From NCBI GenBank assembly GCA_029882355.1, contig JAOUKV010000008.1, positions 1-64,000 on the forward strand: 64,000 bases of DNA, read 5' to 3'. The DNA comes from Gammaproteobacteria bacterium (GTDB lineage: Bacteria > Pseudomonadota > Gammaproteobacteria > SZUA-229). This document shows, piece by piece, positions 8,396-64,000 of the stretch. Under the pieces are notes generated by a model. That model did not search any database. It saw only the letters and a program-made list of their open reading frames with translations, and had not been told where the DNA came from. Numbering within the stretch: position 1 is the stretch's first letter; every line of letters begins with the position of its first letter. Both the position numbers and the translations under genes were made by a program.

Positions 8396-8464
8396 AAAAG
8401 GTCTTAATGTGGTTAGCCAGGAATGACTAGACTCTGCAATGAGGAAAATATAGATCAGAGCTAT

Positions 8465-10388: not shown

Positions 10389-10468
10389 GGGCGGATTTAA
10401 TCAGGAATGACAAGATAATGCTATGCAATCGAGATTACTAATGGAAATCTTTGATAATTAACGTCTAT

Positions 10469-11413: not shown

Positions 11414-11489
11414 ATTTTCATCCATGAATAATGTTTTTGAAGTTTTATAATAAAACAGTTGCAGCAATATGTCTTGTTTAAATAGGAAA

Positions 11490-44804: not shown

Positions 44805-44819
44805 AATATTATTCTCGCA

Positions 44820-45476
44820 TTAACCCATGTGGATTCGTTCGCCATCAATCTTTACATCCTGCTCAGCTAAAATAACAGCTTGCCTTGTTTTAACTGACAT
44901 AAGATTGCGTATTGATTGCATTAAATTACCGGCTGTTAACTGATCAATTTTTTCGACAAATCGAAATGAGTTCTGAACTCTTTGCGTCAATGTAGTAGCA
45001 ACTGTTTCAATAGTGTTAGTAAAAATCCTACTCGATTTAGCATGTACTGTTGCGGCATCTGAAACCAGATCGACTTTATTTATTTGAAACAACCCATGGT
45101 GACTACTGATCGCAACATCTTGAGATGAAATAGATACACTTTCAGTTGACGCAAGATTGATGGCTTCACGTGCGGCCAACGTAATATTGTCATTTTTCGA
45201 TTCAATCATCAGGCCGTTCTCAACAGAAATGCATGTGGATTGTTGCTTTATTCTGTCAAGAATCGACAATATATATCCATTACCATTTTCATCCATATAC
45301 AACAGAACTGTATCACCTATAACTGGTTTAACAAGACAACTAACTGCTGGTTTGGCACTATATTGGCCATGTTCTGCTTTAGCAAAAAAACCAGAAGGAT
45401 GTTCTGAAATCAAAATAGCTGTGACTGCCATCGACTCTAAATGAGTTGATTTTGGCTTCAAGTTTATTGCCTGCAT
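44820..45476 (-). CDS. DUF3540 type VI-associated protein
   Basis: The 218-aa cytoplasmic protein is of the DUF3540 type found with VgrG, DUF2169, pentapeptide and DUF4150 genes. Seen: an OB-fold-like first third (KPVIGDTVLLYMDENGNGYI) resembling the base of VgrG spikes. A beta-helix-like run follows (LMIESKNDNITLAAREAINLAS, TESVSISSQDVAISS), then a helical segment and IDGERIHMG at the end. The gp5-like character suggests it may cap or extend the spike; that is inference. GAGG precedes the ATG. Confidence 0.8.
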   Translation of the reverse strand: MQAINLKPKSTHLESMAVTAILISEHPSGFFAKAEHGQYSAKPAVSCLVKPVIGDTVLLYMDENGNGYILSILDRIKQQSTCISVENGLMIESKNDNITLAAREAINLASTESVSISSQDVAISSHHGLFQINKVDLVSDAATVHAKSSRIFTNTIETVATTLTQRVQNSFRFVEKIDQLTAGNLMQSIRNLMSVKTRQAVILAEQDVKIDGERIHMG

Positions 45477-45518
45477 ATTAAAACCTCGAGTGATTAATTA
45501 TTTCTATTGTGCTTAACA

Positions 45519-46571
45519 TTATTTTGGCTTCCATTGTTCCGCATTAGCTCTTTTCACATCGGTACCAAGCGCTGTCAACTTTGATGATCCTTGCCAAATT
45601 GCAGCATCATCAAAAACATCATGTAAATTGGTGCGAAATAGTTCAGCATGCATAAAGTTAGAATCACGTAGGTCAGCATGTGCTAAATCAGCATATGTCA
45701 GATCTGCTTTTGTAAATAGGGCTGCTTCACATTTTGAATTGGCCATTTGTGCCTGAATAAGTTTGGCTTTTGTAAAATCACATTCATACAAATTACATTC
45801 CTGCATGCTCGCTTGTTCTAGCTGAGCTTCTTTCAAACTACAGCCTTTCATGTTTGCGCCATAAAAAATCGCATTATTCGCAATGGCATGATCGAACACA
45901 GCATTTTCCAAGTCTGCGTCCATGAAACTGGTTTGTGTAAGATTTGCTCCAACAAAGCGACAGTCTTTCATATTTGCTTCTCTAAACTGTGACATAGATA
46001 AATCCATACCTGAAAAATCTTGCCCAGCCAGATCAGGTTTAATAAAAACTGTTTGTTTAATATATGCTCCCTGAATAACTACATCCTGCAAATTTGCCTC
46101 AATAAAATTAGTTCTCTCTAGATTCGCCTCATTAAATGACGCACCCTCAAGATTGGCATTAATTAAATTGGTAAAGTTCATTTGAGCTTTATCGAAGCAT
46201 GCATTCGAGAGATCAGGATCAATAAAACTTGCCTGAAACATATTAGCGCCTGAAAAATCTGCCTGTTTCATTTTTGCGCTAACGAAGTTACAGTTACTAA
46301 CATCTGAGTCATTAAATAGTGCAGCTTCCATTACTGGCTCAATAAAATTTGCAATACCAAAAGTCATTCCTGAAAAGTCAGTTCTATTAAACGTGCAATT
46401 AATAAAATTCGCCTCATTTAATAACGCGTTTTTGAACGAGCAATCACTGAAATTAGTCTCCATGAAAACGCCACCAGCCAGATCGGCGCCAGAATAGTCA
46501 TTTCCACTAAGGTTCTGATTAAGAATGATTTCACCAGACTTAACTTCTTTTTGGAGTTCCTGTAATGTCAT
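45519..46571 (-). CDS. Pentapeptide-repeat protein, type VI accessory
   Basis: Nearly all of the 350 residues follow the A(D/N)LXX five-residue period, for example ADLAGGVFMETNFSDCSF, ANLEGASFNEANLERTNF and ADLTYADLAHADLRDSNF, predicting a right-handed quadrilateral beta-helix. No signal peptide or membrane segment is seen. Its start overlaps the stop of the DUF2169 gene by four bases (ATGA), so the two are translationally coupled. Function in type VI clusters is not established; a load, scaffold or effector role is possible. Confidence 0.88.
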   Translation of the reverse strand: MTLQELQKEVKSGEIILNQNLSGNDYSGADLAGGVFMETNFSDCSFKNALLNEANFINCTFNRTDFSGMTFGIANFIEPVMEAALFNDSDVSNCNFVSAKMKQADFSGANMFQASFIDPDLSNACFDKAQMNFTNLINANLEGASFNEANLERTNFIEANLQDVVIQGAYIKQTVFIKPDLAGQDFSGMDLSMSQFREANMKDCRFVGANLTQTSFMDADLENAVFDHAIANNAIFYGANMKGCSLKEAQLEQASMQECNLYECDFTKAKLIQAQMANSKCEAALFTKADLTYADLAHADLRDSNFMHAELFRTNLHDVFDDAAIWQGSSKLTALGTDVKRANAEQWKPK

Positions 46572-49380: not shown

Positions 49381-52176
49381 TTAACCCAGCATCTGAAAAG
49401 CGGCGTTCTTCATAGCAATCGCTTTATTCTTAATTTCTGTGGCACCACTTTCTATTGCCGTTGCTGTTGCTTTAATCGCAGTAACATTAGCCTTGAGGGC
49501 AGTAGTGACAGTACTTAGGCTGGCAGCAGTCGTGGTATCCATTTCACACAATTTCAATTTACCACTGACCATTTTAAGCTCCATTTCAGCCGCACCATTA
49601 GCTTCTATTTTTACGCCTGCAGAAACTTCCATAACAACGGCGAGTGTTGTATCAATCTTGCCTCCGATAAATAAATCATTGGTAAGTCCAACTGTCATAG
49701 AATTAGCGGCATTCACGTTCATTTCATTTTTTGCACCAAGAAACATATCACTGGTTCTGCCCATAACTTTATTATCTGCATCACCATGAATCGTTTCTTT
49801 TTTGTCGCCATAAGTTTCCGACAGGGTATCACCAACAGTTATCTCTGCCGTGTATCCATTTGTGTATGAATAACTATTCCCCCATTTTTTTTCAATAGAA
49901 GATATGCTTGGGTCTATCGTATTTGTTTTGTAGGTTGCAGCTGCATAGCTATCATGCGATGTATCAAGGTCATTAGTTTCTGCAGTTCCGCCCGACACCT
50001 CTAATAAATTTTCAGTATAACCATTACCATAGTTATAAGTTTGAAGTGAGCCACCTGGTCCTACACCGCCACTCCAGTTAAATGCACGTCCAAAATGATA
50101 TTCGCATTTATCACCCCAACTTTTTTCAACCAGTCCATCTTGCCCATCTTCCCATTCTGAATAGTCTTTGCTGATTTCAGCATCTGCAACGTAATCATGT
50201 TCCTTTAGCGTAGTACCGAGAGATCTCATTGCCTCAGTCATATTAAAATGTTCGCCTTCAATCTGTTCCTCAGACTCGTGAATTTCTTCATAATCATTAC
50301 CAAACCCTATAGTAAAGTCGGCACCCCAATTATAGATATTACCTTCTGTATAGTTGTATTGGTCGCCATACATCATTTTTATGTGATGCCTTCCATCATT
50401 CATATCCAAAGGCAGACCCTCAGTACTAAAGCGTGTTCCTCCAGGCGATTCTGTTGTTTGTTCATAAAGACCAAATGAAAATTCTGGGTCAACAAATGTC
50501 CAGTCTTTTGTCTTAATTTTCTTTTTAGCACCACCACGTACTTCTGTTACTGACATACCATGTGTACTAAATACTGACTGGTTGCTATTTTCACTATTTA
50601 CCAGTGATTGAGTTGGTTGATTTGAAACGGCGCCAGAAATTACTGGTCGATCTGGATCACCATTGACGAAAGTAAGGAAGACTTCGGTCCCATCCATTAG
50701 TGGGTAAAACAAGCCCTCCTCTTCCCACTGTCCTTCTGAATTTATAACCCCACCTGCATAAGGCTGAGACATACGTATATAGTGGCTGGCACGATCGCTA
50801 TCATCAATTATCGTACTACGCTTGAAAGGAAGCAGGACTCGAAACCGTCCATGCTCATCTAGCTCAGCATATTCACCCGGTGCCGCAGCGTAAATAAATG
50901 CTGAAATGATGCCGTGAAATCTTGGTTTGTGAGTAACACGTGCAGGCCGATATTGCACAGTCTCATCAATAGCAACGAAGTTGTTTTCATATAGTGGAGA
51001 TGATGTGGAGCTACCGTAATCATGAGAATCATGGTCACGATGGCCCAATCCAAGACCTTTTCCATGAGAATCATGACCTTTTCCAGAGCCATGACTATGT
51101 CTTGAAGATTCATGACTGCCAGAAGATGCAGTACTATCAAGAAAAAAACCACGATGAGTTACTTCAGTTATCAGGTAATTCGTTGAATTATTAAACGCAT
51201 CATTAGGATGATTATTCATCGCAAAAACGTAACCTGATCTCAATCCGCAAACGCCACTTTGACCGTAATAACGTGTATTTTTTACAGCAAATTCTTCTGC
51301 GCGAATTTGAGCAATATTTTCAATATTATAGCCGCCGTCGTCATCATTAAAGTCGCCACCGTAGACATAGTGGTTACCAGAAAAGCTTGCTTCAATATCG
51401 TGATCGGCAAATACATCATCTGCAGGCGCAGATGGATTATAAGACTCTAATGCAACTGAACCAGGTAACCTTGTTTTTCTGCATGACCAACCTGTAATTG
51501 ATTGATACAACTTATTAGCTGAAGGACTTACATCGAATTCAATTTCAGAAGTATGCCAGGTATCATCGCCTGCAGGCCCATCACTAAAGACTAACGTATC
51601 AGTACCTGATTGCTGATCAAAATAATAATAAATACCCTCGTTCTCTAACAATCGAGAGATGAAATCAAAATCAGTTTCATTAAACTGGCATCGATAATTC
51701 TTACTCTGTAATGGACCCTGGATATCAGCTGTACGATAGGCTACATCTTGATATTCATCATCTAGCATACTCTCAAGAACTTCCTTGACAGTTAAAACAG
51801 ATGGATCATTGAATACTTTACTTGTTTTATTTAATGTAAGCTGCCACAGGCGTGGGACCAGCGTTGCAGTATAATAGGTATAACCCGCAGCAGTATTATT
51901 TTCATCAAAACTGGCTAGCATGCCATAGACAGGACAGTCCTCAGCACCAGTATATTTTATTGTAAAACATGGATTCCCTCTAAGCATGTCATCGAGAAAA
52001 TCCACGTCGGGCGCATGAGTATCAGATGCTTTTAATTCAATCCTGTACTCATATAATCGAGAAATACCCTCGGTTGCCTCAAAAGAAACAACGGTAAAAT
52101 AATCCTCCGCACCCGAATCAGCTGCATCTGAAGTAAATATAAATTCAGGAACTGCATTTGAAGTTGAATCACTCAT
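49381..52176 (-). CDS. vgrG: Type VI spike protein VgrG (TssI)
   Basis: VgrG forms the trimeric spike at the tip of the Hcp tube. Residues ~1-330 are the gp27-like part (YFTVVSFEATEGISRLYEYR, CQFNETDFDFISRLLENEGIYYYF). The gp5 OB fold follows (EYAELDEHGRFRVLLPFKRS, GLFYPLMDGTEVFLTFVNGD, DRPVISGAV). The stalk has repeats near MTVGLTNDLFIGGK. Two oddities stand out: a histidine-rich loop at ~347-392 (SRHSHGSGKGHDSHGKGLGL, then GHRDHDSHDYG) between the gp27 and gp5 parts, and an Ala/Lys/Thr helix at the C-terminus (TALKANVTAIKATATAIESG). No toxin domain is fused. Ten bases separate it from tssG. Confidence 0.95.
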   Translation of the reverse strand: MSDSTSNAVPEFIFTSDAADSGAEDYFTVVSFEATEGISRLYEYRIELKASDTHAPDVDFLDDMLRGNPCFTIKYTGAEDCPVYGMLASFDENNTAAGYTYYTATLVPRLWQLTLNKTSKVFNDPSVLTVKEVLESMLDDEYQDVAYRTADIQGPLQSKNYRCQFNETDFDFISRLLENEGIYYYFDQQSGTDTLVFSDGPAGDDTWHTSEIEFDVSPSANKLYQSITGWSCRKTRLPGSVALESYNPSAPADDVFADHDIEASFSGNHYVYGGDFNDDDGGYNIENIAQIRAEEFAVKNTRYYGQSGVCGLRSGYVFAMNNHPNDAFNNSTNYLITEVTHRGFFLDSTASSGSHESSRHSHGSGKGHDSHGKGLGLGHRDHDSHDYGSSTSSPLYENNFVAIDETVQYRPARVTHKPRFHGIISAFIYAAAPGEYAELDEHGRFRVLLPFKRSTIIDDSDRASHYIRMSQPYAGGVINSEGQWEEEGLFYPLMDGTEVFLTFVNGDPDRPVISGAVSNQPTQSLVNSENSNQSVFSTHGMSVTEVRGGAKKKIKTKDWTFVDPEFSFGLYEQTTESPGGTRFSTEGLPLDMNDGRHHIKMMYGDQYNYTEGNIYNWGADFTIGFGNDYEEIHESEEQIEGEHFNMTEAMRSLGTTLKEHDYVADAEISKDYSEWEDGQDGLVEKSWGDKCEYHFGRAFNWSGGVGPGGSLQTYNYGNGYTENLLEVSGGTAETNDLDTSHDSYAAATYKTNTIDPSISSIEKKWGNSYSYTNGYTAEITVGDTLSETYGDKKETIHGDADNKVMGRTSDMFLGAKNEMNVNAANSMTVGLTNDLFIGGKIDTTLAVVMEVSAGVKIEANGAAEMELKMVSGKLKLCEMDTTTAASLSTVTTALKANVTAIKATATAIESGATEIKNKAIAMKNAAFQMLG

Positions 52177-52186
52177 TATCTATCCT

Positions 52187-53188
52187 CTATGCACAATTTT
52201 CTAAACTAGTTAACGGCATTGTTAGGTTATTCGTTTGACCACTGCTAACACCAACCATCCAGGCATTACGTCCAAGCGTTGAACTTGCCACATCACCCAA
52301 CATGATATTCTTCTCAGCACCTGGTTCTAATTTCAGAATAATGTCATATGCAAGTGGCTGTGAAAGAAACAATTTAGTTACAGCAGAAACAAATGTTCTC
52401 GTTGCGTCATCATTTGTTATATTTTCAAACACAGAACGGCTCACAGGTCCAATTTCTATCACAAATTTACCAGATCGATCATCGACCTGCTGACCAATAA
52501 CTGTAGCGTTTCCCAATGAATTATTTTCTTTCCCCAATACACATCTCTGATGATCAGATATAGGAACTTTCCTATGAACACAAGGAACAATATCTACTAC
52601 TGCATCGTTAAAATAATCTTTTAATATCGTCTTTAAACCTAGTTGTGTTTTTGGCTGCTGACAGAGTATTCCAGAATACTTTAGCAGTTTTCCTGCAAGA
52701 TTCTGATTGCTTCTGAACTCTTCACTTAACCCTGTAACGCTGTATAAAATTTCCCAGTAACGGCTGTTTTCTTCTTCAATAGCATTGTGCGAAAACTTAT
52801 ATTTTAACCATGCCTTATACAGCAGTGGATACATATGATGATGAATAATATCAAGAAATTCTTTTGACGCATTTCTCTCTTCCCACTCTTCATCAAGAAG
52901 TTCTTCAGTAAAGTACCCTGGCAGAGGTGAAGATATACCGTACAACCCAAAAAATGTCGATATTATTTCATAGCCACTTTCTATTTTTCTAACTTCTGTA
53001 ATGTCAGAATGCGGATAACTCAGATTTAGCTCTGGGTGTATGCGTAACTCAGGCTGTTTCTTATTATCTGACGAATCTTTTGACAGCCTATTTAATAAGC
53101 GAATTGCCTGAAAGAAGTCATACGACTCACCATCTTCAATAATGTCATCTATTAAATTAATGGTCTGTCTCCAGTTCTTGGCGCCCAT
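52187..53188 (-). CDS. tssG: Type VI baseplate protein TssG
   Basis: TssG with TssE, TssF and TssK forms the baseplate wedge. The 333-aa sequence shows the family start (YDFFQAIRLLNRLSKD, ELRIHPELNLSYPHSDI), the central FFGLYGISSPLPGYFTEELL and RYWEILYSVTGLSEEFR. Its start lies inside tssF, overlapping by 37 bases. The ATG at 53188 gives the expected N-terminus. Confidence 0.94.
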   Translation of the reverse strand: MGAKNWRQTINLIDDIIEDGESYDFFQAIRLLNRLSKDSSDNKKQPELRIHPELNLSYPHSDITEVRKIESGYEIISTFFGLYGISSPLPGYFTEELLDEEWEERNASKEFLDIIHHHMYPLLYKAWLKYKFSHNAIEEENSRYWEILYSVTGLSEEFRSNQNLAGKLLKYSGILCQQPKTQLGLKTILKDYFNDAVVDIVPCVHRKVPISDHQRCVLGKENNSLGNATVIGQQVDDRSGKFVIEIGPVSRSVFENITNDDATRTFVSAVTKLFLSQPLAYDIILKLEPGAEKNIMLGDVASSTLGRNAWMVGVSSGQTNNLTMPLTSLENCA

Positions 53189-54882
53189 TTAAAAACCACA
53201 TCTGAAACACTATCGGTCATTGTAAACTCTGTAAAGCTATTGAGACTGGCGAAGCTTCCAAACAAATAATCCAGCAGCATTCCAAATAAATACATATCAC
53301 CTGAACAGGAATAGCTTTTAGAATTAACGTGGACATTAATCGCCTGGCCGCGCATGGGAATACCTGAAACCAAACGATCACAGGGAGCAACCTTGATATC
53401 AACAACCCCTTCTATACATTTTCTATTGATAGCCTCCTGTTTATTTCCAGCACCGCTGGTAAATATATACAACCCAAGTAATGCCTTGAAATTATCTACT
53501 TCAGCAAGTGAAAGATAATTTAGAGACAAATGCGACAGCAATCGCCATAACATAGATTTACCTGAAGGAATCCTCTGACTATCTGAAGGCTGCATAATAT
53601 TCTTAAATTCAACTAACTCAGGCGTACATTTAGTTCGTTTGCAAATATCACCTAATCTAAGGTTAGAAGGAATATTCCCGTTAGAACACGTCATCCCGAT
53701 CAAAACGGTTTCCTGTTCGCCCATTTGATATTCAGGAGGATAACTAAAAGACAAATAAGCATTAGTCTTATTTTCAGTATCACCCTGGCGATAACTTACC
53801 TGATACACTGCATCAGAATTCCGATCAGGATCAGAAAGTCCTAATTCCTTATATTCATTTTTTCTAGCAGTCTTTCGATCAGTTCCGATGACGCTATTTA
53901 TAGAGTAAATATGATAATTATTCCCTGGATCTCTCAAGGGACGAATTCGATACTCACTCCTTTTATGGTCATTAAGAATTGATTCCGCATCATGCTCGAA
54001 TAAATTAACCGCAGGTGTGGCATTAAGAACAAATCGTTTTTCATTGATACGTGGAATGCGTATTGGTATCTCGTTAAGATTAAATCTCAGGGTTAGACAA
54101 TTGCCAGTTATTTGCGTTGTATATTTGCTTAGATTCTTCAGCTCAATAAACAAAAACTTCTCTCTCAGAAGAAAAAATTCTTGTATGAGTCGGTAAGCAG
54201 GAAAAGCATTACTAGGATATTCAAGTAAAGCGTCTTCATCATCAAACCCTAGTGCCGTTACTTTAGCATCAGTAGCAAGGACACTATTCTTGTCTGAACC
54301 ATTTGATATTTCAATACTGTGTAAAAAATTCAATAGAATATAATAAAGATCAGAGGCTCCTGAATAATCACCAGCGAGATGTATCTTTAGCGAATCAGTG
54401 TTCCATTTAGAGATATCAATCCCCCTTGTTTCAATCTTTACATCAATCGCTTGTTTACCCGTAGATGTTTCAGATATCTTTGCACCGGTAACAGCAACTG
54501 GCCAAACATCAAGATCATAGGTCGTCCTGAATCGACACTTAACATCATCAACAGGTTCCGAGTCTAAATAGGCACCTTTGGGTATATCTAATTTATTTTT
54601 TAGTATTGGTGTCGGCGTAAATTCAACAATAGTTGCAGACGGCAAAGGCCTTAAGTAGTGAGGAAATATGTGTTTGAGTAGACCTTGTGAGAACTCAGGG
54701 AATTCATCATCAATTTTTTGACGTATTTTCCCAGTTAAGAATGCAACACCTTCCAGTATTCTCTCAACATCTGGATCAACACTTGCTGCATTTAATTGAG
54801 GCGCAATTGTTGGATATGCATTCGAAAACTCAGTTGCAAGATCGCGAAGATTATCAAGTTCATTTTGATAATATTTATTCAT
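53152..54882 (-). CDS. tssF: Type VI baseplate protein TssF
   Basis: The 576-aa baseplate protein begins YYQNELDNLRDLATEFSNAY with VDPDVERILEGVAFLTGKIR, followed by FPEFSQGLLKHIFPHYLRPL, which are typical TssF sequences. Later motifs include LRFNLNEIPIRIPRI, YRIRPLRDP and SYPPEYQMGEQETVLIGMTC. It starts within the tssE stop (TAATG), a one-base overlap that implies translational coupling. Confidence 0.94.
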   Translation of the reverse strand: MNKYYQNELDNLRDLATEFSNAYPTIAPQLNAASVDPDVERILEGVAFLTGKIRQKIDDEFPEFSQGLLKHIFPHYLRPLPSATIVEFTPTPILKNKLDIPKGAYLDSEPVDDVKCRFRTTYDLDVWPVAVTGAKISETSTGKQAIDVKIETRGIDISKWNTDSLKIHLAGDYSGASDLYYILLNFLHSIEISNGSDKNSVLATDAKVTALGFDDEDALLEYPSNAFPAYRLIQEFFLLREKFLFIELKNLSKYTTQITGNCLTLRFNLNEIPIRIPRINEKRFVLNATPAVNLFEHDAESILNDHKRSEYRIRPLRDPGNNYHIYSINSVIGTDRKTARKNEYKELGLSDPDRNSDAVYQVSYRQGDTENKTNAYLSFSYPPEYQMGEQETVLIGMTCSNGNIPSNLRLGDICKRTKCTPELVEFKNIMQPSDSQRIPSGKSMLWRLLSHLSLNYLSLAEVDNFKALLGLYIFTSGAGNKQEAINRKCIEGVVDIKVAPCDRLVSGIPMRGQAINVHVNSKSYSCSGDMYLFGMLLDYLFGSFASLNSFTEFTMTDSVSDVVFKWAPRTGDRPLI

Positions 54883-55298
54883 TACATCATATCCAAAGTT
54901 ACGCTACCATCACCAAATAAATTCACATTAACTGTAAAATTTATATCTTGATCGTTATGATTGAATTCTGCTGAAACAATAAAACAAAGGTTATCACTGT
55001 TTTTTGTTTCGTTATATTGAATTGATACTGAAGACAATCGTTTTTCATAATTTTTCGTTAGCATTAATAATGACTTCTGTATATTTTCAATCTCAGGCTC
55101 AGCATAACCATTAAACAGTTGGCCAAAGTCCTGCAAACCAAAATCACTATCTGTTAGTACAGTACCCTTGCGTGTATTGTATAATTTTTCAAGATCATCA
55201 CGAATAGAATCAGTCAACTCATTGACATCAAGAATTTCTATTGATGTATCAAGAGCACGTTCCCAGCGACTTATTTTTTTTAGTAATCTTTCTTGCAT
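54882..55298 (-). CDS. tssE: Type VI baseplate protein TssE (gp25-like)
   Basis: TssE is the gp25-like wedge protein that starts sheath polymerisation. The 138-aa sequence has the N-terminal MQERLLKKISRWE, DELTDSIRDDLEKLYNTRKG-like segment (VNELTDSIRDDLEKLYNTR) and TVLTDSDFGLQDFGQLF. A conserved IQKSLLMLTKNYEKRLSSVS and a beta-strand tail follow. The family EPR motif is not obvious; the region reads RKGTVLTDSDFG. It is ten bases downstream of hcp. Confidence 0.9.
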   Translation of the reverse strand: MQERLLKKISRWERALDTSIEILDVNELTDSIRDDLEKLYNTRKGTVLTDSDFGLQDFGQLFNGYAEPEIENIQKSLLMLTKNYEKRLSSVSIQYNETKNSDNLCFIVSAEFNHNDQDINFTVNVNLFGDGSVTLDMM

Positions 55299-55308
55299 GA
55301 TAATTTAA

Positions 55309-55791
55309 TTAAGCTATCTCGCCCCAAGCATCCTCAAATTCAATACCATCTGCTTCCCATGTCCATATGATCTTTTCGTATGAAATAAATACGTCTTCCA
55401 TATGCTTTAATGTCTCATTACTCCTATCTAGAACGTTAGGCACCCATGGGTGAACTTTTGTAATCATTGCATTTTCCATCTGCATACTAAAATACAATTC
55501 TTGTTCACCGAAGCCATCCATCCTATACCAATCTAAAACCACTTCAGTTAATAACTCTCCAGTACACAGAGCCTGATAAAGCATAGGTGTACTCTTATCA
55601 AATTCCTTAGTTATCATCATTGGCCTATGTAGCCTTCTACCGATCGCAACCCCCCGATCATCAGTAGGTATTTCTACAATATGATCAAAGGCCTGTACAA
55701 GTATGGTACCTTCGCGTTCCTCTATATCACAGGAGCCTTCAATTAAGCCTTGCTCCTCACCTGTTATTGTTAAATTACCCGGCATTGGCAT
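55309..55791 (-). CDS. hcp: Type VI tube protein Hcp (TssD)
   Basis: Hcp hexamers stack into the inner tube. The 160-aa protein starts MPMPGNLTITGEEQGLIEGS and shows TILVQAFDHIVEIPTDDRG, GRRLHRPMMITKEFDKSTPM, and near the end the Hcp signature FISYEKIIWTWEADGIEFEDAW. AGGAGAAG lies before the ATG. It sits between the sheath gene and tssE inside the main operon, so it is the housekeeping tube subunit. It is distinct from the second hcp whose end is at the right edge. Confidence 0.95.
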   Translation of the reverse strand: MPMPGNLTITGEEQGLIEGSCDIEEREGTILVQAFDHIVEIPTDDRGVAIGRRLHRPMMITKEFDKSTPMLYQALCTGELLTEVVLDWYRMDGFGEQELYFSMQMENAMITKVHPWVPNVLDRSNETLKHMEDVFISYEKIIWTWEADGIEFEDAWGEIA

Positions 55792-55835: not shown

Positions 55836-57584
55836 TTAATTTTTTTCAAGCTTGGTCGTTTCAGATAATGTGAATGAATTACCCATAAACTTAATGTGTG
55901 GGGTAATTTTAATCCCCGTCAAAAACCAGTCACCTTTACCTTCCACTTCTCTTACTTTGATTTCTACACGTCGTAACGGTCTTCGTGCACGAACACCTGG
56001 TGCAGGATTATCCATGTCAGATACATACTGCTTAATCCAGTTATTTAGTTCATGATCAACATCACGGCGATTTTTCCATGTGCCGATATGCTCACGCTGC
56101 ATCATTTTTATATAATGTGAGATGCGACTGATAATTAATAAATAGGGTATCTGAGCACCTAATCTGACAGACAAGTTATTTTCTCTATTTTTTTCGTTAT
56201 TATCTTCATGAAAAGCATGGGTGGAATAAGCCGAATAAAATGCAGCACTGTCATCACCTTTATGCACACTCAGTGGGATAAACCCTTGCGACACAATTTC
56301 TGCTTCTCTTTTATCCGTTAAAAGAACTTGTGTCGGAATTTTTCCCGTGCGCATATCATCAGAATTCACACCTGCCTGAGACATGCCTTGAACTTTACCG
56401 TCTTCACCTCCCATGATATTCAAACAAAGACGATATTTTGAAAAGCTAGATACCAGGCGTGTAGCAAAAGCAAAAGCAGCATTACCCCAAACTAAATTCT
56501 TTCCATTTTTACCAGTAGATTCTCGATAAAATAAACCACCTGTGGCGATATCATACGGCTGCCGTAACAAGAATGCAGGTAGTGTTAATGCAACATACCG
56601 TGAATCAGGTGATTCTCTAAAGGACTTCCATTTGGCATATGATGGCTGCTCAAAAATAGATTTAACATCTCTAAGGCGGCTAAAATCCTCATAGCTAGAC
56701 ACACCAAAAAACTCAGCCGATGCTGATGCAATAAATGGCAGATGAGATATTGCAGATACCGCTGCAATTCGCTGCAGTAGTTTTATATCAGGAGCCTTTG
56801 GTGTGAAATCGTAATTGCCAATTATCGCACCATAAGGTTTACCCCCAAACTGCCCAAATTCGGCTGAGTAAACTACCTGATAGAATTCGGATTGGATGAC
56901 TTCCGGGGCGTCCTCTAAATCATCCATCAATGCTTGCTTACTAATATTTAAAACATCGATTTCACAATTCTCGGAAAAATCTGTACGCTCCACAAGGAAA
57001 TTTAATGAACGCCATATAGCTTCTAGCTGTTTAAACTTCTCGTGATGTAATATCTCATCTAACTGCAAGGTCATGCGATTTGTTAATTCTGAAACAAGCC
57101 TTCCAATAATACTACTATCAGATGATACATCGCTTAGCGAAAAGCCTTCATTATCAAGAATTTTTAATATTGCAGGATGCACGTCTTTGATAGTCGATAA
57201 ATCAACGTTGTCATCACTTTCTACAAACTCAATAAATTCACTTATAGCAGAAAAAGCCTTTGTATTTGCAATAATATTCTTCGGACTAAAATCATCAAGT
57301 GACTCAAATATATATTCTAAAACAAGATCACTATCATCCTGCAGTAATTTATTTTCAACGTGAATACTTATTTCAGGTTTGAGCCTTAAAAACAGACTCA
57401 CCAAACTATTTTCTGAAACCACCTGTACTTCTTGACCTTCAAAATATTCTGAATTCTCATTACAGGTAAAATCACCACAAACTAGCAAGCGAAATGGCAG
57501 TTCAATTTCCTGCTCAGAACCGCCTACTGTTGTTTTATAGACAAAGTTAACCCTATCTACCGAAATATTTTTTGACTCAGCCAT
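55836..57584 (-). CDS. tssBC: Natural fusion of type VI sheath subunits TssB and TssC
   Basis: One open frame of ~582 aa encodes both sheath proteins. Residues ~8-125 are TssB-like (SVDRVNFVYKTTVGGSEQEI with ELPFRLLVCGDF; LFLRLKPEISIHVENKL; EYIFESLDDFSPKNI). From ~155 to the end it is TssC: MTLQLDEILHHEKFKQLEAI, WRSLNFLVERTDF, IDVLNISKQAL, AEFGQFGGKPYGAIIGNYDF, LPFIASASAEFF, ESPDSRYVALTLPAFLLRQP, LTDKREAEIVSQGFIPL, and a TssC C-terminus (PHIKFMGNSFTLSETTKL). Separate TssB (~165 aa) and TssC (~495 aa) would total about 660, so the join removed roughly 70-80 residues around the TssB end and TssC start. The ATG at 57584 follows AAAGGA; tssM ends 13 bp upstream. No other tssB or tssC is in the window. 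Confidence 0.9.
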   Translation of the reverse strand: MAESKNISVDRVNFVYKTTVGGSEQEIELPFRLLVCGDFTCNENSEYFEGQEVQVVSENSLVSLFLRLKPEISIHVENKLLQDDSDLVLEYIFESLDDFSPKNIIANTKAFSAISEFIEFVESDDNVDLSTIKDVHPAILKILDNEGFSLSDVSSDSSIIGRLVSELTNRMTLQLDEILHHEKFKQLEAIWRSLNFLVERTDFSENCEIDVLNISKQALMDDLEDAPEVIQSEFYQVVYSAEFGQFGGKPYGAIIGNYDFTPKAPDIKLLQRIAAVSAISHLPFIASASAEFFGVSSYEDFSRLRDVKSIFEQPSYAKWKSFRESPDSRYVALTLPAFLLRQPYDIATGGLFYRESTGKNGKNLVWGNAAFAFATRLVSSFSKYRLCLNIMGGEDGKVQGMSQAGVNSDDMRTGKIPTQVLLTDKREAEIVSQGFIPLSVHKGDDSAAFYSAYSTHAFHEDNNEKNRENNLSVRLGAQIPYLLIISRISHYIKMMQREHIGTWKNRRDVDHELNNWIKQYVSDMDNPAPGVRARRPLRRVEIKVREVEGKGDWFLTGIKITPHIKFMGNSFTLSETTKLEKN

Positions 57585-57597
57585 AAGATGTCCTTTA

Positions 57598-60500
57598 TCA
57601 GTTAGACCAGCAAGCAATCACTTGTTTTGGCGGAGATAGCGGTACGGCAGTTAGCATCTGAATAACTGGGCCTTGACCTTTGATCGTGTAATTTACATCA
57701 ATCGCTTTAACAGAAGAATTAATCAACTGAGAGGCCTGTTCTGGAAAGTCTTCTGGTTTAAAAATATGTCTGCCATCAATAAAGTCAGCAAGAAATAATG
57801 AAAACCCTTTTCTTCCAGAATATGTTTTACGTAGAGAATATTCACCTAATTCGATCCTTAATGTAACATCACCACATTTTTCGAGTGACCATATAAAATC
57901 ATTAGATGCTGAATAGTTATAATTTGCCAGAGTCTGCACTGCATCAGCACAGTGTAAATCTACGTAGGTAGCAAACGGTGATATTGTTGCACTTTGATTA
58001 ATACCCGTAGGTAAGGCTCCAATTTTAACTGTAAATTCATTGGCAACGATACTTCTACCTTCATCAGCATTATTAATAAAACTCATGAAGTTAGATTCCC
58101 ATGAGAGTGATTTTTTTTCTACAACACTAGGAATATACCCCTTCCTATATTTTTTACTCAGGAATGGCATTGCAACTTTATCCAGGTAATTCCATACCAG
58201 ACCATCATCTCCGATTAATGCAACACCCAACTTATCTTCATTGACCCCGACAATCCCTGATAATACTTTATCTTCCCAGTCAGTTTGAAGGTGGCACGCA
58301 GTTTCTTGTTGCATATAGTCATAAGCTAACCGGACTGGACCTGTATATAAATCCCAGAACAAGCGATTGCTTTCACGAGGCTTGCCTATTATGCGCTGCA
58401 GATTTGTTATTGCCGTCCATGCTTTTGCACCAGCATCATCTCCTTTGCTGATTTCGTCTGGATTCGTAAATGCATTTACTGTTGCGTTATAGGATAATTT
58501 TGTCGAATCAGAATTAAATGCTATATCTTGCAATGCCAACTTATATTCCTTATATGTTGTAGCAGCTTGTTCTAGCGCATCATCAAGATCAACTTCTTTA
58601 CCACCACCCGACATTTTATCGGCTTTCTTTTTAGCCTTCATGCCAGTCTTTCCAGCTTTTGCCACAGCTTTACCAACGCCGCCAAGCTTACCAATGAGCT
58701 TAAGTGCCATTTTAGCTGCTTTTTTATTACCCTTTCCGTCATCACCACCAGAGGCATCACCAACAAAGTCCTGCATCTCAGCAAAATAATTAATTTTTTC
58801 ACGTGCCTGAAAATAACCCTCGGCATAGACAGGTTCCAGCTCAGTAGAAACTCGTCGCATAAATGAGAAGTACGGGTTATCTTTGCCAGTCATTGTCTCA
58901 AGCGTATCAAGCCATTCCTTACGCCCTCTTAATTTGTCTTTCCCAGAATCAAACTGTTCTGCAAATAACTGCCATGTTTTTAAATATTTTCTATTATAGA
59001 AAATCATGAACTCTTCTTTAATCGTAGATAGCTCGATTGAGCCTTCACTTGATTGATTTAATTCATCAAGAAATTGATTAAGAAAATCACGACCTATAAG
59101 TGTATAGGCAGCATCGATAACTGGCTGATTATTAATAACACGACTACCACCCCAAAAATCATCAAGCTTAACTTTGGCAAAGCCCTGGATGTTGGCCCAT
59201 TCAATCAACCACTCATGATTGCCATGACTAGAAGCAACAGTTTTTACTAAAAGCGCCTGTAATGAATTTTGTTCTTCAGTGAGGACAATAGCAGACGGTT
59301 GCAGAAGTGTATACTGTCGGTATAAAGCATCAAAAAGCTGTGAAGCTTCAACGCTAATTGTATCACTTACTGAAACAAGGTATTCATCAGGGACTTTTGG
59401 AAGAGCATCAAAACCAATCATATCTTCTTTTAAAATGGCTTTAGTTAAATTTATTCGACGAACAATGCCTGATACTAAATATGCCGTTTGCTCACTACTA
59501 ATGCTTCCGACTAATAAATTAAGTGGTTTATCTATTGAAACCAATAACTCATTTTTAAATGTGTCGATATAAATACTGACTAGCTTTTTATATTGTGGCG
59601 ATTGATTAAAAGGCCCATACCATGGAATGACCCATTCATTCTCAGCCTGTCGTATTTCAGAAATCAACTCATGAAGACGATTCAACGCAATAATTTGGTC
59701 ACTGGTATCACCTTCAACAAGATTTACTTCTGAATAGGATTCAACGATTCTATCAAGAGTTGATTTATCATTGAGGAAAGTGGACGTAAGACCGATCATT
59801 ACTAACAGCAACAATGCGCCACTGGTACTTATACCGTAGTTTCTAATCGCACGTCTAACCCTCTCTGAACTAGCTAGTGTACTTAATATTCCACGATCCG
59901 GAGGCATTACCTTCGTAAATAAATGATGCAGAAAAATGCCTTTATTACTTAATTTATCTGAATTAGTTTCAGCCTGTGATTGTTGACTGGAACTAAAATA
60001 CAACCCCCTGAATCTTGGTGTTTCCTGGTATAGATTGTCCTTCAGTGCTGTACGTGCAAAAGCATGTAAACCTTTTCGCATCTTCTCTAAATTTAGAGGA
60101 AGCTCAATAAGACTATCATCAGGATTATCGTTACGCTCCATCATCAATAAACGAAGTTCTTTAATGCGTCCTAGCACTTCATCAAAAGCCTTATTAAGGA
60201 TGCTTTCAATATCGCCAGTTTCTTCTTCGCACAAATACCCCATAACTTGTTGCAATGCATCTTCAGGCAAGTAATTGCACCAGTTAGAAAACTGATCAAC
60301 AAGGTCGCATTTTGTAACCATTAGGTATACAGGCATTTGCGCTTCAAGGCGTTCCATCAAATCATTAATACCTGAACGGATCTGCTGCCCCTCTTCCATT
60401 AATTCTTCTTCCGAACATGTTAGCAATCGCTCGGCAGAAACAACCAGAACGACACCATTCAATGGTTCTTTCTGTTTGTGACGGGATAACATTCCAAGCA

Positions 60501-61068
60501 ACGACGCCCATTCTTTACGATCCCTCTTATCTACATCAGGAACCGCATATCGTCCGGCCGTATCAATAACAATTGCTTGATCGTATAACCACCATTCAAG
60601 ATTTAATGTAGAGCCATCAGCATGTTCAGATAATTCCATCGCGGGTGTTAGTAAGCTTGCATTACGTAATGCAGTACTTTTACCAGAGCGAGGTTTGCCG
60701 AATACCATATACCACGGCAACACATACAGGGGATCACCTTTAAGTTTTAGATGTGACGATTTAAGAGTTTTAACCGCTTTATTCCAATCTTTTTTCAAGC
60801 CCTTCAGTAAGTCCTTGGATGACATACCTAATTCAGCATCAACTAAAGAATTTTCTTTTTGCAGCACTCGCATTACTTGAGCCTTTGCGCGATATCTGAT
60901 TATCATTTTTTTAATCAGAATAACTAGCACCCAAAGCCCAAGAATCAAGCCAAAGATAATCGCGGCTTTTTCTAACGGCAGCTCCATTAGTAATGCAACA
61001 CCAAACACAATACCTGCAATCAGCAGTACGATGAAAAGATAAAGCAAGAAAGTGAAGAATTTTTTCAT
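57598..61068 (-). CDS. tssM: Type VI membrane-complex protein TssM (IcmF)
   Basis: TssM spans the inner membrane and contacts TssJ in the periplasm. The 1156-aa protein has two N-terminal membrane segments (FFTFLLYLFIVLLIAGIVFG, AAIIFGLILGLWVLVILIKK). A cytoplasmic GTPase-like domain follows, with Walker A FGKPRSGKSTALRNAS (~120) and VIDTAGRYAVPD. A third membrane helix (SGALLLLVMIGLTSTFL, ~420) and a large periplasmic part complete it. It follows tssL after six bases. Unlike many TssM proteins the Walker motif looks intact. Confidence 0.96.
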   Translation of the reverse strand: MKKFFTFLLYLFIVLLIAGIVFGVALLMELPLEKAAIIFGLILGLWVLVILIKKMIIRYRAKAQVMRVLQKENSLVDAELGMSSKDLLKGLKKDWNKAVKTLKSSHLKLKGDPLYVLPWYMVFGKPRSGKSTALRNASLLTPAMELSEHADGSTLNLEWWLYDQAIVIDTAGRYAVPDVDKRDRKEWASLLGMLSRHKQKEPLNGVVLVVSAERLLTCSEEELMEEGQQIRSGINDLMERLEAQMPVYLMVTKCDLVDQFSNWCNYLPEDALQQVMGYLCEEETGDIESILNKAFDEVLGRIKELRLLMMERNDNPDDSLIELPLNLEKMRKGLHAFARTALKDNLYQETPRFRGLYFSSSQQSQAETNSDKLSNKGIFLHHLFTKVMPPDRGILSTLASSERVRRAIRNYGISTSGALLLLVMIGLTSTFLNDKSTLDRIVESYSEVNLVEGDTSDQIIALNRLHELISEIRQAENEWVIPWYGPFNQSPQYKKLVSIYIDTFKNELLVSIDKPLNLLVGSISSEQTAYLVSGIVRRINLTKAILKEDMIGFDALPKVPDEYLVSVSDTISVEASQLFDALYRQYTLLQPSAIVLTEEQNSLQALLVKTVASSHGNHEWLIEWANIQGFAKVKLDDFWGGSRVINNQPVIDAAYTLIGRDFLNQFLDELNQSSEGSIELSTIKEEFMIFYNRKYLKTWQLFAEQFDSGKDKLRGRKEWLDTLETMTGKDNPYFSFMRRVSTELEPVYAEGYFQAREKINYFAEMQDFVGDASGGDDGKGNKKAAKMALKLIGKLGGVGKAVAKAGKTGMKAKKKADKMSGGGKEVDLDDALEQAATTYKEYKLALQDIAFNSDSTKLSYNATVNAFTNPDEISKGDDAGAKAWTAITNLQRIIGKPRESNRLFWDLYTGPVRLAYDYMQQETACHLQTDWEDKVLSGIVGVNEDKLGVALIGDDGLVWNYLDKVAMPFLSKKYRKGYIPSVVEKKSLSWESNFMSFINNADEGRSIVANEFTVKIGALPTGINQSATISPFATYVDLHCADAVQTLANYNYSASNDFIWSLEKCGDVTLRIELGEYSLRKTYSGRKGFSLFLADFIDGRHIFKPEDFPEQASQLINSSVKAIDVNYTIKGQGPVIQMLTAVPLSPPKQVIACWSN

Positions 61069-61074
61069 TATTTT

Positions 61075-61749
61075 TTAATATTTCACAAGTTGTTGAATTT
61101 CATTTAGTGTTGCTGCAATATCGAAACCAAAGTACAGCATCATAATCACAATAATAGTTACTGGTAAGCCAATCAGGACTGGGTATATATTTAATCTTGG
61201 TTGATACCCTGAACTCTTATCCAAACTATGACCACGATATGCAAACGGGAACAATGTCGCCGAATCAATATCCTGCTCTGACTCATCAGGTAAAATTACG
61301 CTCAAATTAAACGCTTTGATTTCTTCGTAACGCTGCCGATCTTCACCACGAAAGTATTTACCTCTAAAACCAAGCCCTAAACACAGGGCATATATTTCTC
61401 TTATATCTCTATCAGGCCCAAATTTATTCAATTCGTTCAAGCGATCATAGAATGCTGATCCCGCACTTGTTGTGTTAAAACAAAGCCTTTGCAATGTATT
61501 TGTTTTCCACTCACTTTTATACGCCCAGTTTGAGCAAAGAAATAATTCATCAACAAATGCAACAACAGGGAACTTTGCTTGCTCAAGCATTTCACTAGAG
61601 ATAGCATATTCTTCGGACATTGTTTTTGATTTATCCAGCAGTGACATCAGATTAGTTCTTGCCTCATCTGCCGATGCAACTTGTATATCACCTCTAGCCA
61701 GTTTACGAGCGTACAATATGGCATCTGTAAAACAGTCTACTATTCGCAT
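61075..61749 (-). CDS. tssL: Type VI membrane-complex protein TssL (DotU)
   Basis: TssL is a C-tail-anchored inner-membrane partner of TssM and TssK. The 224-aa protein has the cytoplasmic hook domain with FPVVAFVDELFLCSNW, LQRLCFNTTSAGSAFYDRL and EIYALCLGLGFRGKYF. A single C-terminal membrane helix (YPVLIGLPVTIIVIMMLYFG) is followed by a short periplasmic tail. There is no OmpA-type peptidoglycan-binding extension. It starts one base after the tssK stop, with GAGGAAG inside tssK as ribosome-binding site. Confidence 0.95.
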   Translation of the reverse strand: MRIVDCFTDAILYARKLARGDIQVASADEARTNLMSLLDKSKTMSEEYAISSEMLEQAKFPVVAFVDELFLCSNWAYKSEWKTNTLQRLCFNTTSAGSAFYDRLNELNKFGPDRDIREIYALCLGLGFRGKYFRGEDRQRYEEIKAFNLSVILPDESEQDIDSATLFPFAYRGHSLDKSSGYQPRLNIYPVLIGLPVTIIVIMMLYFGFDIAATLNEIQQLVKY

Positions 61750-61750
61750 A

Positions 61751-63136
61751 CTACTTCCTCACAACCACAAGTTCGACCTTAGTATCTTGTGGTGCCTCTT
61801 CCCATAAAAGAGATACGTTTTGCTGCCTGGCCACACTACTCCACTGATCATCATGAACATCAAGACGTAAGTAGTATGAATTAGGCCGACGAGGCAAACC
61901 TGGTGGAGGTGCAGGCATATAAATCATACCAACACCTGGCAATGAGCGTTCAACCAATACTTCAACTGAATCTCTTGATGACAATTTAGCCGCGGTTAAC
62001 AATGACTGTTGTGCATCATCAAAACTATCCATTGTATTAACAATCAGATAGAAATCCACATGCTCTGTAAAGAATTCCTGTGGCACATCCGCAGAAAAAG
62101 CCACTTCATCTCGTATCATCTCAACCAGATATTGAGGCCCTATTGTTATTTCATTTAATAATTGCGTAACTAAAGAGCTGGCAGAGGTGAAGCAGTGACC
62201 AATGTCACTATGATTATACGGTGGCAACAAACGCTCGCCATCAGCCGTCTCTCCCAATACCGTAACACGGTCTGTAAAGGTACTTACCTCGCCTACAAGT
62301 TCTCGAAGTACTCCGTAAACAATCCAGGGATGAACATCGCCACATTCAGACAAATGAAAAAGCCTGGGCACAAAACGACTCAATGATTGCAAGGCCATTT
62401 TGTAACGAAGTAGATTTGCATCAAATCCTTTTTTAGCATGTACAGGTGCTTTATAAGATGATAACTGTAATGCTCTTCCCATGATCTCATCACGCACATC
62501 CTTAACTAGCCTTGCCAGCTCTGGCACAGCGCTTAGAGTTACTGTTGGCGGTACAAAATGTCGGTTATACATTATCGAATCACCATCACGAATAACCTGA
62601 GCAACAGGAATAAGTTCATAATCATTCATATCATCTTTTTCATTATCAAAGACTATTTTGACAACATGGTTTAAGAACTTGACTTGCGCTTCTGGACCAT
62701 CAACATACATATCCTTGACGTCTTCTGGATTTGCCATGCTAACAAAGCGTGTATTTATATCATTAACATTATTCAATTCATTAACGACAGTAACATTATC
62801 ACCAAACTTATTATATTTATGAATAGCCAGATAAATGGTGAATGGCTTTTCAGGATCAACCCACTCAGATTCAAAAGAACGAGGTGCAACAACGCCATTA
62901 TCTGGAACTGACACAAATGTCCCATCAGAAAAAATAAACTCACCCTTATCGATTTCACAGGTTCGATGGTTTAATGAGGCACTTTGCATCTCAATTGAAC
63001 ACACACCCCAGAAATGAGGCTGTTGAAAAGTGTGATAAGGATACAATAATGACTGCTGATATCTTTCAGCAAGCTGAAAGTGCTGCGGCTGCAAAAATAG
63101 ACCTTGATGCCAAAATACTGGTTTATTATTTCCCAC
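61751..63136 (-). CDS. tssK: Type VI baseplate-membrane connector TssK
   Basis: TssK links baseplate wedges to TssL and TssM. The 461-aa protein has the family start PVFWHQGLFLQPQHFQLAER and YHTFQQPHFWGVCSIEMQSA, and later SRFVPRLFHLSECGDVHPW, YGVLRELVGEVSTF and the C-terminal YYLRLDVHDDQWSSVARQQN. Translation starts at GTG with GAGGTG upstream. Confidence 0.95.
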   Translation of the reverse strand: MGNNKPVFWHQGLFLQPQHFQLAERYQQSLLYPYHTFQQPHFWGVCSIEMQSASLNHRTCEIDKGEFIFSDGTFVSVPDNGVVAPRSFESEWVDPEKPFTIYLAIHKYNKFGDNVTVVNELNNVNDINTRFVSMANPEDVKDMYVDGPEAQVKFLNHVVKIVFDNEKDDMNDYELIPVAQVIRDGDSIMYNRHFVPPTVTLSAVPELARLVKDVRDEIMGRALQLSSYKAPVHAKKGFDANLLRYKMALQSLSRFVPRLFHLSECGDVHPWIVYGVLRELVGEVSTFTDRVTVLGETADGERLLPPYNHSDIGHCFTSASSLVTQLLNEITIGPQYLVEMIRDEVAFSADVPQEFFTEHVDFYLIVNTMDSFDDAQQSLLTAAKLSSRDSVEVLVERSLPGVGMIYMPAPPPGLPRRPNSYYLRLDVHDDQWSSVARQQNVSLLWEEAPQDTKVELVVVRK

Positions 63137-63212: not shown

Positions 63213-63854
63213 TTATTTAATAGCATCAGACCAATCAATATCGGATCTATTGCTACTTCCACTTTGAGTCGATTTTTTTTTATTATCAGTAATCTGTTTT
63301 GTGCTTGAGCGCCCCAGGTCTACATAAATATTTAATTTATCTGGGAATGCTTTTGCTTCATCTGATATTAATGTTAATGCAACCAGTCCTTTTTCTACGA
63401 GTCCACGTTCTTGTGCACGCATCGGTATAGGGAACACTTTAATATCTTTTGTCGGATTAAGATTGTAATAACCGACAATCATGCCTAGATGTTGTGCAGA
63501 TTGAGCGCGATTAAGAGTCACTTTTTTTTGCTCACCAGGTCTAACATTAATTAATGTAAAACCAGCAACTGTTTCATCAATCTGACCTTTTTGAAGTAAT
63601 TCGACAGCACCTTCCATTGTCACTGATAAACCACTAAACGTATTTGGATCACTCAATTGAAAAACACCAATTGCCAATGAGTGAGGTCTTCCGCTAACGG
63701 AATTCAAATCTGCAGGCGCTGATATAGACACTGTAATTGCACGCTTAGCATACGTCCAATCATCAGGATCAACTGTTAATTCTGTTGGCGTTGAGCTACA
63801 AGCTTGTAACATAAACACTACAAGTACGTATAAGCACCTATTATTTAGCAACAC
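63213..63854 (-). CDS. tssJ: Type VI outer-membrane lipoprotein TssJ
   Basis: TssJ anchors the TssM periplasmic domain to the outer membrane. The lipoprotein signal CLYVLVVFMLQAC gives lipobox LQAC. The mature domain has the transthyretin-like pattern with SISAPADLNSVSGRPHSLAIGV (in two parts) and VFQLSDPNTFSGLS, then ELLQKGQIDETVAGF and YVDLGRSS. A polar C-terminal tail after residue 185 (KKKSTQSGSSNRS) is extra. Translation probably starts at GTG 63854. It is 76 bp upstream of tssK and preceded by a terminator, so it may head the operon. Confidence 0.92.
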   Translation of the reverse strand: MLLNNRCLYVLVVFMLQACSSTPTELTVDPDDWTYAKRAITVSISAPADLNSVSGRPHSLAIGVFQLSDPNTFSGLSVTMEGAVELLQKGQIDETVAGFTLINVRPGEQKKVTLNRAQSAQHLGMIVGYYNLNPTKDIKVFPIPMRAQERGLVEKGLVALTLISDEAKAFPDKLNIYVDLGRSSTKQITDNKKKSTQSGSSNRSDIDWSDAIK

Positions 63855-63927: not shown

Positions 63928-64000
63928 CTAGCCTGCGCTACCTGCACGCCAGTCATCAGTACCTTCAGTACCAGCAACCTCATGCGTCCATGTAATAGTT
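63928..64000 (-). CDS. hcp: Second Hcp, C-terminal end only (runs off window)
   Basis: The last 23 codons and the TAG stop of a minus-strand gene are present: TITWTHEVAGTEGTDDWRAG followed by SAG. This is the usual end of Hcp tube proteins (YxxITWTH..AGxxGxDDWRA). It differs clearly from the other Hcp in the window, which ends KIIWTWEADGIEFEDAW, so two tube subunits are encoded. The N-terminal part is outside the right edge. Confidence 0.8.
   Translation of the reverse strand, partial: TITWTHEVAGTEGTDDWRAGSAG

What the first reader, a model, noticed from the sequence alone, without database searches (positions are those of the whole stretch)
55836..57584. Single-chain TssB-TssC contractile sheath protein
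Canonical type VI systems use two sheath proteins. Here one uninterrupted frame carries TssB motifs (IELPFRLLVCGDF, ESLDDFSPKNI) followed by TssC motifs (LDEILHHEKFKQLEA, EFGQFGGKPYGAIIG). The fused form resembles the one-subunit sheaths of T4-like phages and other contractile injection systems. The junction is shorter than the sum of two separate proteins, so this looks like an evolved fusion and not a simple lost stop codon.
Basis: partly seen in the sequence, partly recalled or inferred. Interest (0 to 1): 0.82.

Follow-up and report, generated by a model that had tools for sequence, protein, structure and literature searches.

The report
Extra single-chain type VI sheath protein
A gammaproteobacterium carries, beside its normal two-part contractile sheath, an extra gene in which both sheath parts are one protein that lacks the tag used for sheath recycling; it is inherited together with the base of the weapon and may be a dedicated base ring.

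Summary
The minus-strand gene at 55836-57584 encodes one 582-aa protein: a TssB-like part (residues 1-112), a short variable linker and a near-complete TssC. It is not a lost stop codon. Eight genomes carry it as one strongly supported clade (45-73% identity to the window copy), under purifying selection. A confident model (pLDDT 90) matches single-chain sheath proteins of phages and other injection systems across both halves.

The implied reading, that one fused gene replaces tssB and tssC, fails here. Canonical tssB and tssC lie in the same cluster about 10 kb away, just outside the window, and all eight genomes also have a canonical tssC. The fusion is an extra subunit, in the order tssM-FUSION-hcp2-tssE-tssF-tssG. 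It lacks the TssC N-terminal helix by which ClpV recognises contracted sheath (0/8, against 60/60 canonical TssC). Its trees agree with the baseplate genes and conflict with those of the canonical sheath.

Most likely it is a ClpV-blind sheath protomer working with the baseplate, probably the first ring(s) together with Hcp2 (inferred). TssB-TssC fusions beside canonical genes are already published (roseobacter TssCL, PMC9515649), but the one tested here lacks the C-terminal sheath domain. Verdict: new variant of a known kind.

The parts
55836..57584 (-). fused TssB-TssC sheath gene, 582 aa
57249..57584 (-). TssB-like part (residues 1-112), with the N-terminal donor linker R11..E28-L29-P30 at the same spacing as in canonical TssB
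57090..57248 (-). linker (residues 113-165), replacing the TssB C-terminus and the TssC N-terminus with its ClpV helix; 4-43% identity between relatives
56175..57089 (-). TssC core, PF05943 (residues 166-470), with D424 = VipB D333
55839..56174 (-). C-terminal TssC gpW/gp25-like domain, PF18945 (residues 471-582)
55309..55791 (-). hcp2, a second Hcp tube protein; in its order this type is found only in fusion genomes
54882..55298 (-). tssE baseplate gene (gp25-like)
53152..54882 (-). tssF baseplate gene, the only one in the genome
52187..53188 (-). tssG baseplate gene
49381..52176 (-). vgrG spike gene (named by similarity to vgrG of related clusters and by its place)
57598..61068 (-). tssM; ends 13 bases before the fusion start codon; marks the tree breakpoint
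61075..63136 (-). tssL (61075-61749) and tssK (61751-63136), named from the similarity of these ORFs to tssL and tssK of related clusters
63213..63854 (-). tssJ lipoprotein gene
63928..64000 (-). end of hcp1. The cluster goes on outside the window on contig C50: hcp1 to 64443, clpV 64507-67107, canonical tssC 67154-68629, canonical tssB 68668-69147, tssA 69147-70835

Best explanation
The gene encodes a complete single-chain sheath protomer, made once by fusing a duplicated tssB-tssC pair, and kept as an extra subunit beside the canonical TssB/TssC sheath. Shown by sequence: it keeps the parts needed to enter and contract with a sheath lattice, namely the TssB donor linker at exact length, the C-terminal TssC domain and strand, and the D333 residue. 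Shown: it has lost the TssC N-terminal helix that ClpV grips, so ClpV should not extract it (inferred from published ClpV work). Shown: it is inherited with hcp2 and the baseplate genes and not with the canonical sheath. Inferred: it co-assembles with TssBC as the baseplate-proximal ring or rings, docking on TssE and surrounding an Hcp2 ring. It would work as a fitted, non-recycled adaptor between a variable baseplate and a conserved sheath/tube, much as other contractile injection systems use more than one sheath paralogue.
For: Extra gene: canonical tssB, tssC and clpV on the same contig; all eight fusion genomes have a canonical tssC, on the same contig in five. One origin: 8 fusions form one clade, 100/100, inside a canonical TssC class; the TssB halves also form one clade. 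Functional: pN/pS 0.21-0.27. Lattice parts: R-x17-E-L-P linker spacing 8/8 identical to TssB, D333 equivalent 8/8 (importance of both from PMC5797969). Fold: AF2 pLDDT 89.6, pTM 0.91; TssC chains Z 37-44, single-chain phage/CIS sheaths Z 18-25 over model residues 27-569, so both halves. ClpV helix: HMM scores at least 28 bits in 60/60 canonical TssC (hold-out lowest 20.8), none in 8/8 fusions; deleting this helix abolishes ClpV binding (PMC5048182). Baseplate link: tssM-FUSION-hcp2-tssE order in all loci long enough to show it; trees of TssBC, TssM and module 1 pair window with G005 (98-100), whereas FUSION+Hcp2 and TssEFG pair G005 with G059 (100); only one tssF per genome; hcp2 type present only in fusion genomes of the order.
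Against: No experiment and no structure of the complex; the ring position is inferred. Co-inheritance with tssE-G could reflect gene adjacency alone, since one recombination tract moves neighbours together, and the tree conflict rests on five taxa; the fusion alone gives 90/92. Rate of change is no evidence: TssE/F/G diverge just as fast relative to TssC in clusters without a fusion. The V. cholerae baseplate map shows ordinary sheath as the first ring and a uniform Hcp tube (PMC5813253), so T6SS does not generally need such a ring.
Confidence: 0.5

Rival explanations
1. Fusion plus Hcp2 form a complete alternative sheath and tube, built on the same baseplate in place of TssBC/Hcp1: a one-shot tail that ClpV cannot recycle, with the two tails used under different conditions.
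For: Fusion and hcp2 are adjacent and co-inherited; the fusion keeps all lattice and contraction features; unrelated genomes G419 and G467 have a fused protein as sole sheath gene and no ClpV, so fused sheaths can evidently serve alone.
Against: The fusion lies in one tight gene string with the only baseplate genes (spacings 10-44 bases), so separate regulation from the baseplate is unlikely; it never occurs without the canonical set.
Confidence: 0.25
2. The fusion is a regulatory minor subunit, for example a distal-end cap or a deliberate stopper that changes sheath length, stability or contraction, scattered in or ending the TssBC sheath.
For: Mixed sheaths with altered VipA or VipB subunits block activity in a dominant way (PMC5797969), so a minor variant subunit could regulate; lack of the ClpV helix would locally protect sheath.
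Against: Linker length and D333, whose change blocks contraction, are kept in 8/8, so it does not look like a stopper; gene position and trees tie it to the baseplate rather than to TssA or the distal end.
Confidence: 0.13
3. A decaying paralogue or an assembly artefact without function.
For: It diverges faster than canonical TssC (69% against 92% identity within the genus) and 5 of 69 TssC-invariant columns are lost in all copies.
Against: Eight genomes, no frameshifts, pN/pS 0.21-0.27, 79% of invariant TssC cells kept.
Confidence: 0.03

Closest known systems
Canonical TssB/TssC (VipA/VipB) sheath heterodimer
   Same: All three Pfam domains, donor linker, D333, TssC fold at Z 37-44
   Different: One chain; no ClpV helix; TssB C-terminus and TssC N-terminus removed; present in addition to the canonical pair
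Roseobacter TssCL (PMC9515649)
   Same: TssB and TssC domains in one protein, coexisting with tssB and tssC
   Different: TssCL is 1,684 aa in the paper (two VipA, one VipB); the homologue tested here is 1,207 aa, has no PF18945 C-terminal sheath domain and groups with a different, truncated fusion family. Window fusion is compact, has the full C-terminal domain and arose separately in Gammaproteobacteria
TssC40/ImpD, the second TssC of Agrobacterium, Rhizobium and Pseudoalteromonas
   Same: Extra sheath-subunit gene next to the baseplate genes, without the ClpV helix (0/10); in Agrobacterium needed for Hcp secretion and not redundant with TssC41 (PMC3702570)
   Different: Not fused to TssB; separate clade in another TssC class, so the likeness is convergent
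Fused TssBC as sole sheath gene (G419, G467; also an extra one in G610)
   Same: TssB-TssC in one chain, no ClpV helix
   Different: 690-781 aa, other TssC class, long linker; the only sheath gene in G419 and G467, which lack ClpV
Single-chain sheath proteins of phages, pyocins, PVC and AFP
   Same: Whole-chain fold match across both halves, Z 18-25
   Different: About 10% sequence identity; the likeness arose by fusion within T6SS and not by descent from these

Membership tests
T6SS contractile sheath proteins | TssB domain PF05591 over gathering cut-off | tested here: met
   73 bits against a cut-off of 24; NCBIfam TIGR03358 is under its equivalog cut-off (74.7 against 97.3)
T6SS contractile sheath proteins | TssC domains PF05943 and PF18945 | tested here: met
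   357 and 122 bits; TIGR03355 490 bits against a cut-off of 271.5
T6SS contractile sheath proteins | donor linker length and D333 equivalent needed for contraction | tested here: met
   8/8
T6SS contractile sheath proteins | N-terminal TssC helix recognised by ClpV | tested here: not met
   absent in 8/8, present in 60/60 canonical TssC
T6SS contractile sheath proteins | assembles into sheath | not testable with these tools
   needs experiment
TssCL fusions | TssB and TssC domains in one gene beside canonical tssB and tssC | tested here: met
TssCL fusions | same clade and domain layout as TssCL (no PF18945) | tested here: not met
   window fusion has PF18945 and sits in another clade; the TssCL branch is long
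TssC40/ImpD type | clade of second TssC proteins | tested here: not met
   separate 100-supported clades
Sole single-chain sheath replacing TssB/TssC | no separate tssB and tssC in the genome | tested here: not met
   both present in the same cluster

The most novel reading that the evidence does not exclude
A type VI system with a dedicated baseplate-proximal sheath ring (the fusion) and its own tube ring (Hcp2), both outside the ClpV recycling pool and exchanged between lineages together with baseplate and spike as one cassette, while the long sheath, tube, membrane complex and ClpV stay with the lineage. The fusion and the unrelated TssC40/ImpD type would be convergent solutions to the same need.
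Probability: 0.4. Interest if true: 0.8.

Novelty: new variant of a known kind. Interest (0 to 1): 0.6.

Why it matters
Why some type VI systems keep a second, non-redundant sheath subunit is open. Here three kinds of protein (the window fusions, TssC40/ImpD, and fused sheaths that are sole sheath genes) all lack the ClpV helix, and the two genomes whose only sheath is fused have no ClpV. That gives a direct, testable link between sheath architecture and recycling. If the fusion is a baseplate ring, it would show how a conserved tail is fitted to an exchangeable baseplate and spike. It would also mean that one-chain protomers, the phage arrangement, have evolved again from the two-chain type VI sheath.

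Tried and rejected
Lost stop codon or assembly error: rejected by seven further genomes with the same trimmed fusion. Replacement of tssB/tssC by the fusion: rejected by the canonical pair in the same cluster. Fast divergence of tssE-G as evidence for an adaptor ring: rejected by a control on clusters without a fusion, where TssE/F/G diverge equally fast relative to TssC; only the tree conflict was kept. First structure job with 7 sequences: unusable (pLDDT 44). The literature phrase 'TssB-TssC fusion' found nothing; TssCL was found later through 'two tssC'. Boyer 2009 mentions no TssB-TssC fusion. PVC/AFP multi-paralogue sheath papers were not usefully held, so the comparison with their multiple sheath paralogues rests on my own knowledge. 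One fetched region (L151) was a mistyped stray and was not used. Co-occurrence of a canonical tssC in G797 may come from a different T6SS cluster (61% identity, other gene order), and in G799 and G802 it lies on another contig, so 'same cluster' is shown for five genomes only.

Full report
WHAT IS THERE. The finding lies on the minus strand. ATG at 57584 (RBS AAAGGA) to the stop ending at 55836 gives 582 aa. Pfam detects TssB (PF05591), TssC N-domain (PF05943) and TssC C-domain (PF18945) in one chain. TIGR03355 matches only from profile position 44. Against the genome's own TssB (159 aa) and TssC (491 aa), the fusion keeps TssB to about residue 112 and TssC from about residue 62. It drops the TssB C-terminus and the TssC N-terminus. 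The 53-residue linker is poorly conserved (4-43% identity), while the C-terminal domain is the best conserved part (58-91%).

THE CLUSTER. The window ends inside the cluster. The same contig continues with hcp1, clpV, canonical tssC, canonical tssB and tssA. Full order: tssA-tssB-tssC-clpV-hcp1-tssJ-tssK-tssL-tssM-FUSION-hcp2-tssE-tssF-tssG-vgrG. So the fusion is an additional sheath gene. The genome has exactly two TssC genes and one tssF.

RELATIVES. The same fusion occurs in seven other genomes (L040-L045, L055), named Gammaproteobacteria, Thiotrichaceae or Pseudomonadales MAGs where a name is given, at 45-73% identity. It is found in 4 of 54 genomes of its order and, as a fusion, in the window genome and one other of 369 sampled genomes of the class. 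All eight carry a canonical tssC; it is on the same contig as the fusion in five (window, G005, G059, G801, G347). hcp2 follows the fusion in all eight. In the order, Hcp2-type proteins (72% identity or more) occur only in fusion genomes, and the next matches, at 42-44%, are Hcp1.

ORIGIN. TssC trees give the fusions as one clade with 100/100 support, inside the canonical TssC class that also holds the clusters' own TssC and Salinivibrio TssC. The TssB halves also form one clade (99). Two other sorts of TssB-TssC fusion lie elsewhere on the tree. 'BC' proteins (690-781 aa; G610, G419, G467) belong to another class. 'dC' proteins (about 520 aa) lack PF18945, and the roseobacter TssCL homologue groups with these. 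TssC40/ImpD proteins are a further clade, unfused. Fusions or second TssC genes have therefore arisen several times.

IS IT A WORKING SHEATH PROTOMER? pN/pS is 0.21-0.27 against relatives, although synonymous sites are near saturation. Fusions keep 79% of the cells of 69 columns that are invariant in 60 canonical TssC. The VipA donor linker, whose lengthening by two residues blocks contraction in V. cholerae (PMC5797969), has exactly canonical spacing in 8/8. The residue equal to VipB D333, needed for contraction, is present in 8/8. AlphaFold2 with a 66-row alignment gives pLDDT 89.6 and pTM 0.91. The model matches TssC chains at Z 37-44, and single-chain sheath proteins of phages, pyocins, PVC and AFP at Z 18-25 across residues 27-569, covering both halves. 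The alignment given to AlphaFold contained separate TssB and TssC rows, so the relative placement of the two halves rests partly on the eight fused rows.

THE LOST RECYCLING TAG. [quoted passage not shown] review PMC10433429). An HMM of this segment (consensus ..GSLLDQIIKETRLAP..) scores at least 28 bits in 60/60 canonical TssC, with a lowest hold-out score of 20.8. It finds nothing in 8/8 fusions, 10/10 TssC40-type or 3/3 BC proteins. A TssC loop, LPxHxF, is also lost in the fusions. G419 and G467, whose only TssC gene is a fused BC protein, have no ClpV above the family cut-off (best scores 844 and 807 bits, in the ClpB range). Five genomes with canonical TssBC score 1177 or more. That is two genomes only, so it is suggestive and not proof.

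WHERE DOES IT ACT? Between the window and G005 (same genus), genes up to tssM are 76-92% identical; the fusion is 69%, hcp2 74%, tssE 46%, tssF 57%. I first took this as evidence for an adaptor. A control on clusters without a fusion showed that tssE-G always diverge fast relative to tssC, so that argument was dropped. What remains is a tree conflict. TssB+TssC, TssM and all of module 1 pair window with G005 (98-100). FUSION+Hcp2 (100/99) and TssE/F/G (100/100) pair G005 with G059, and the fusion alone does so at 90/92. The fusion is therefore inherited with the baseplate and not with the canonical sheath, with the break near the tssM/fusion boundary. Adjacency could explain part of this. In known systems the first sheath ring hands its linkers to TssE, and T6SS is said to lack special tube proteins between spike and tube (PMC5813253).

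MECHANISM, STEP BY STEP. Shown by sequence: fused protomer with lattice features kept, ClpV tag lost, extra to TssBC, linked to hcp2 and the baseplate genes. Inferred: it assembles in sheath; it is not extracted by ClpV; it forms the first ring or rings on TssE around Hcp2, and canonical TssBC/Hcp1 then polymerise on top. I give about 0.5 for this, 0.25 for a full alternative non-recycled sheath, and 0.13 for a regulatory minor subunit.

KNOWN OR NEW. A TssB-TssC fusion beside canonical genes was published in 2022 as TssCL, stated there not to occur outside Alphaproteobacteria (PMC9515649). The window protein differs in size, in having the full C-terminal domain, in clade and in host group. 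It is a new variant of a known kind. The general point that several ClpV-helix-less sheath proteins evolved independently was not found in the papers searched here.

Noticed in passing
L051 (G419) 7883-9952 minus; L052 (G467) 9226-11568 plus: Fused TssB-TssC proteins (690 and 781 aa) are the only TssC genes of these genomes, and neither genome has ClpV above the family cut-off: candidate T6SS with a single-chain, non-recycled sheath.
   Followed up: partly
L016, L018, L030-L033, L053, L057, L077 (G799): A widespread family of about 480-520 aa proteins: TssB plus TssC without the C-terminal gpW/gp25-like domain, on a long branch. Roseobacter TssCL groups with it. Its role is unknown.
   Followed up: partly
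TssC40/ImpD-type genes, e.g. L126:9499-10887, L127:7914-9440: The second TssC of these clusters also lacks the ClpV helix and sits next to tagJ-tssE, like the window fusion; the likeness looks convergent.
   Followed up: yes
canonical TssC residues 309-313 (LPxHxF); window fusion residues 401-405: The loop histidine is H in 57/60 canonical TssC and in dC proteins, but lost in all window-type fusions, TssC40-type and BC proteins; it may dock the N-terminal helix or ClpV.
   Followed up: partly
window 55309-55791 against C50:63928-64443: Hcp2 lacks a nine-residue stretch near the N-terminus that Hcp1 has (ALSEESVGN region) and has fixed differences from Hcp1, possibly bearing on ring stacking.
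   Followed up: no
window 44388-49360 minus: Downstream cargo: PAAR-like protein (PF13665), DUF3540 protein, and two large proteins (350 and 930 aa) with repetitive A(D/N)LxxA-type motifs typical of pentapeptide repeats, likely T6SS spike/effector genes; vgrG is only about 33% identical to that of the nearest relatives.
   Followed up: no
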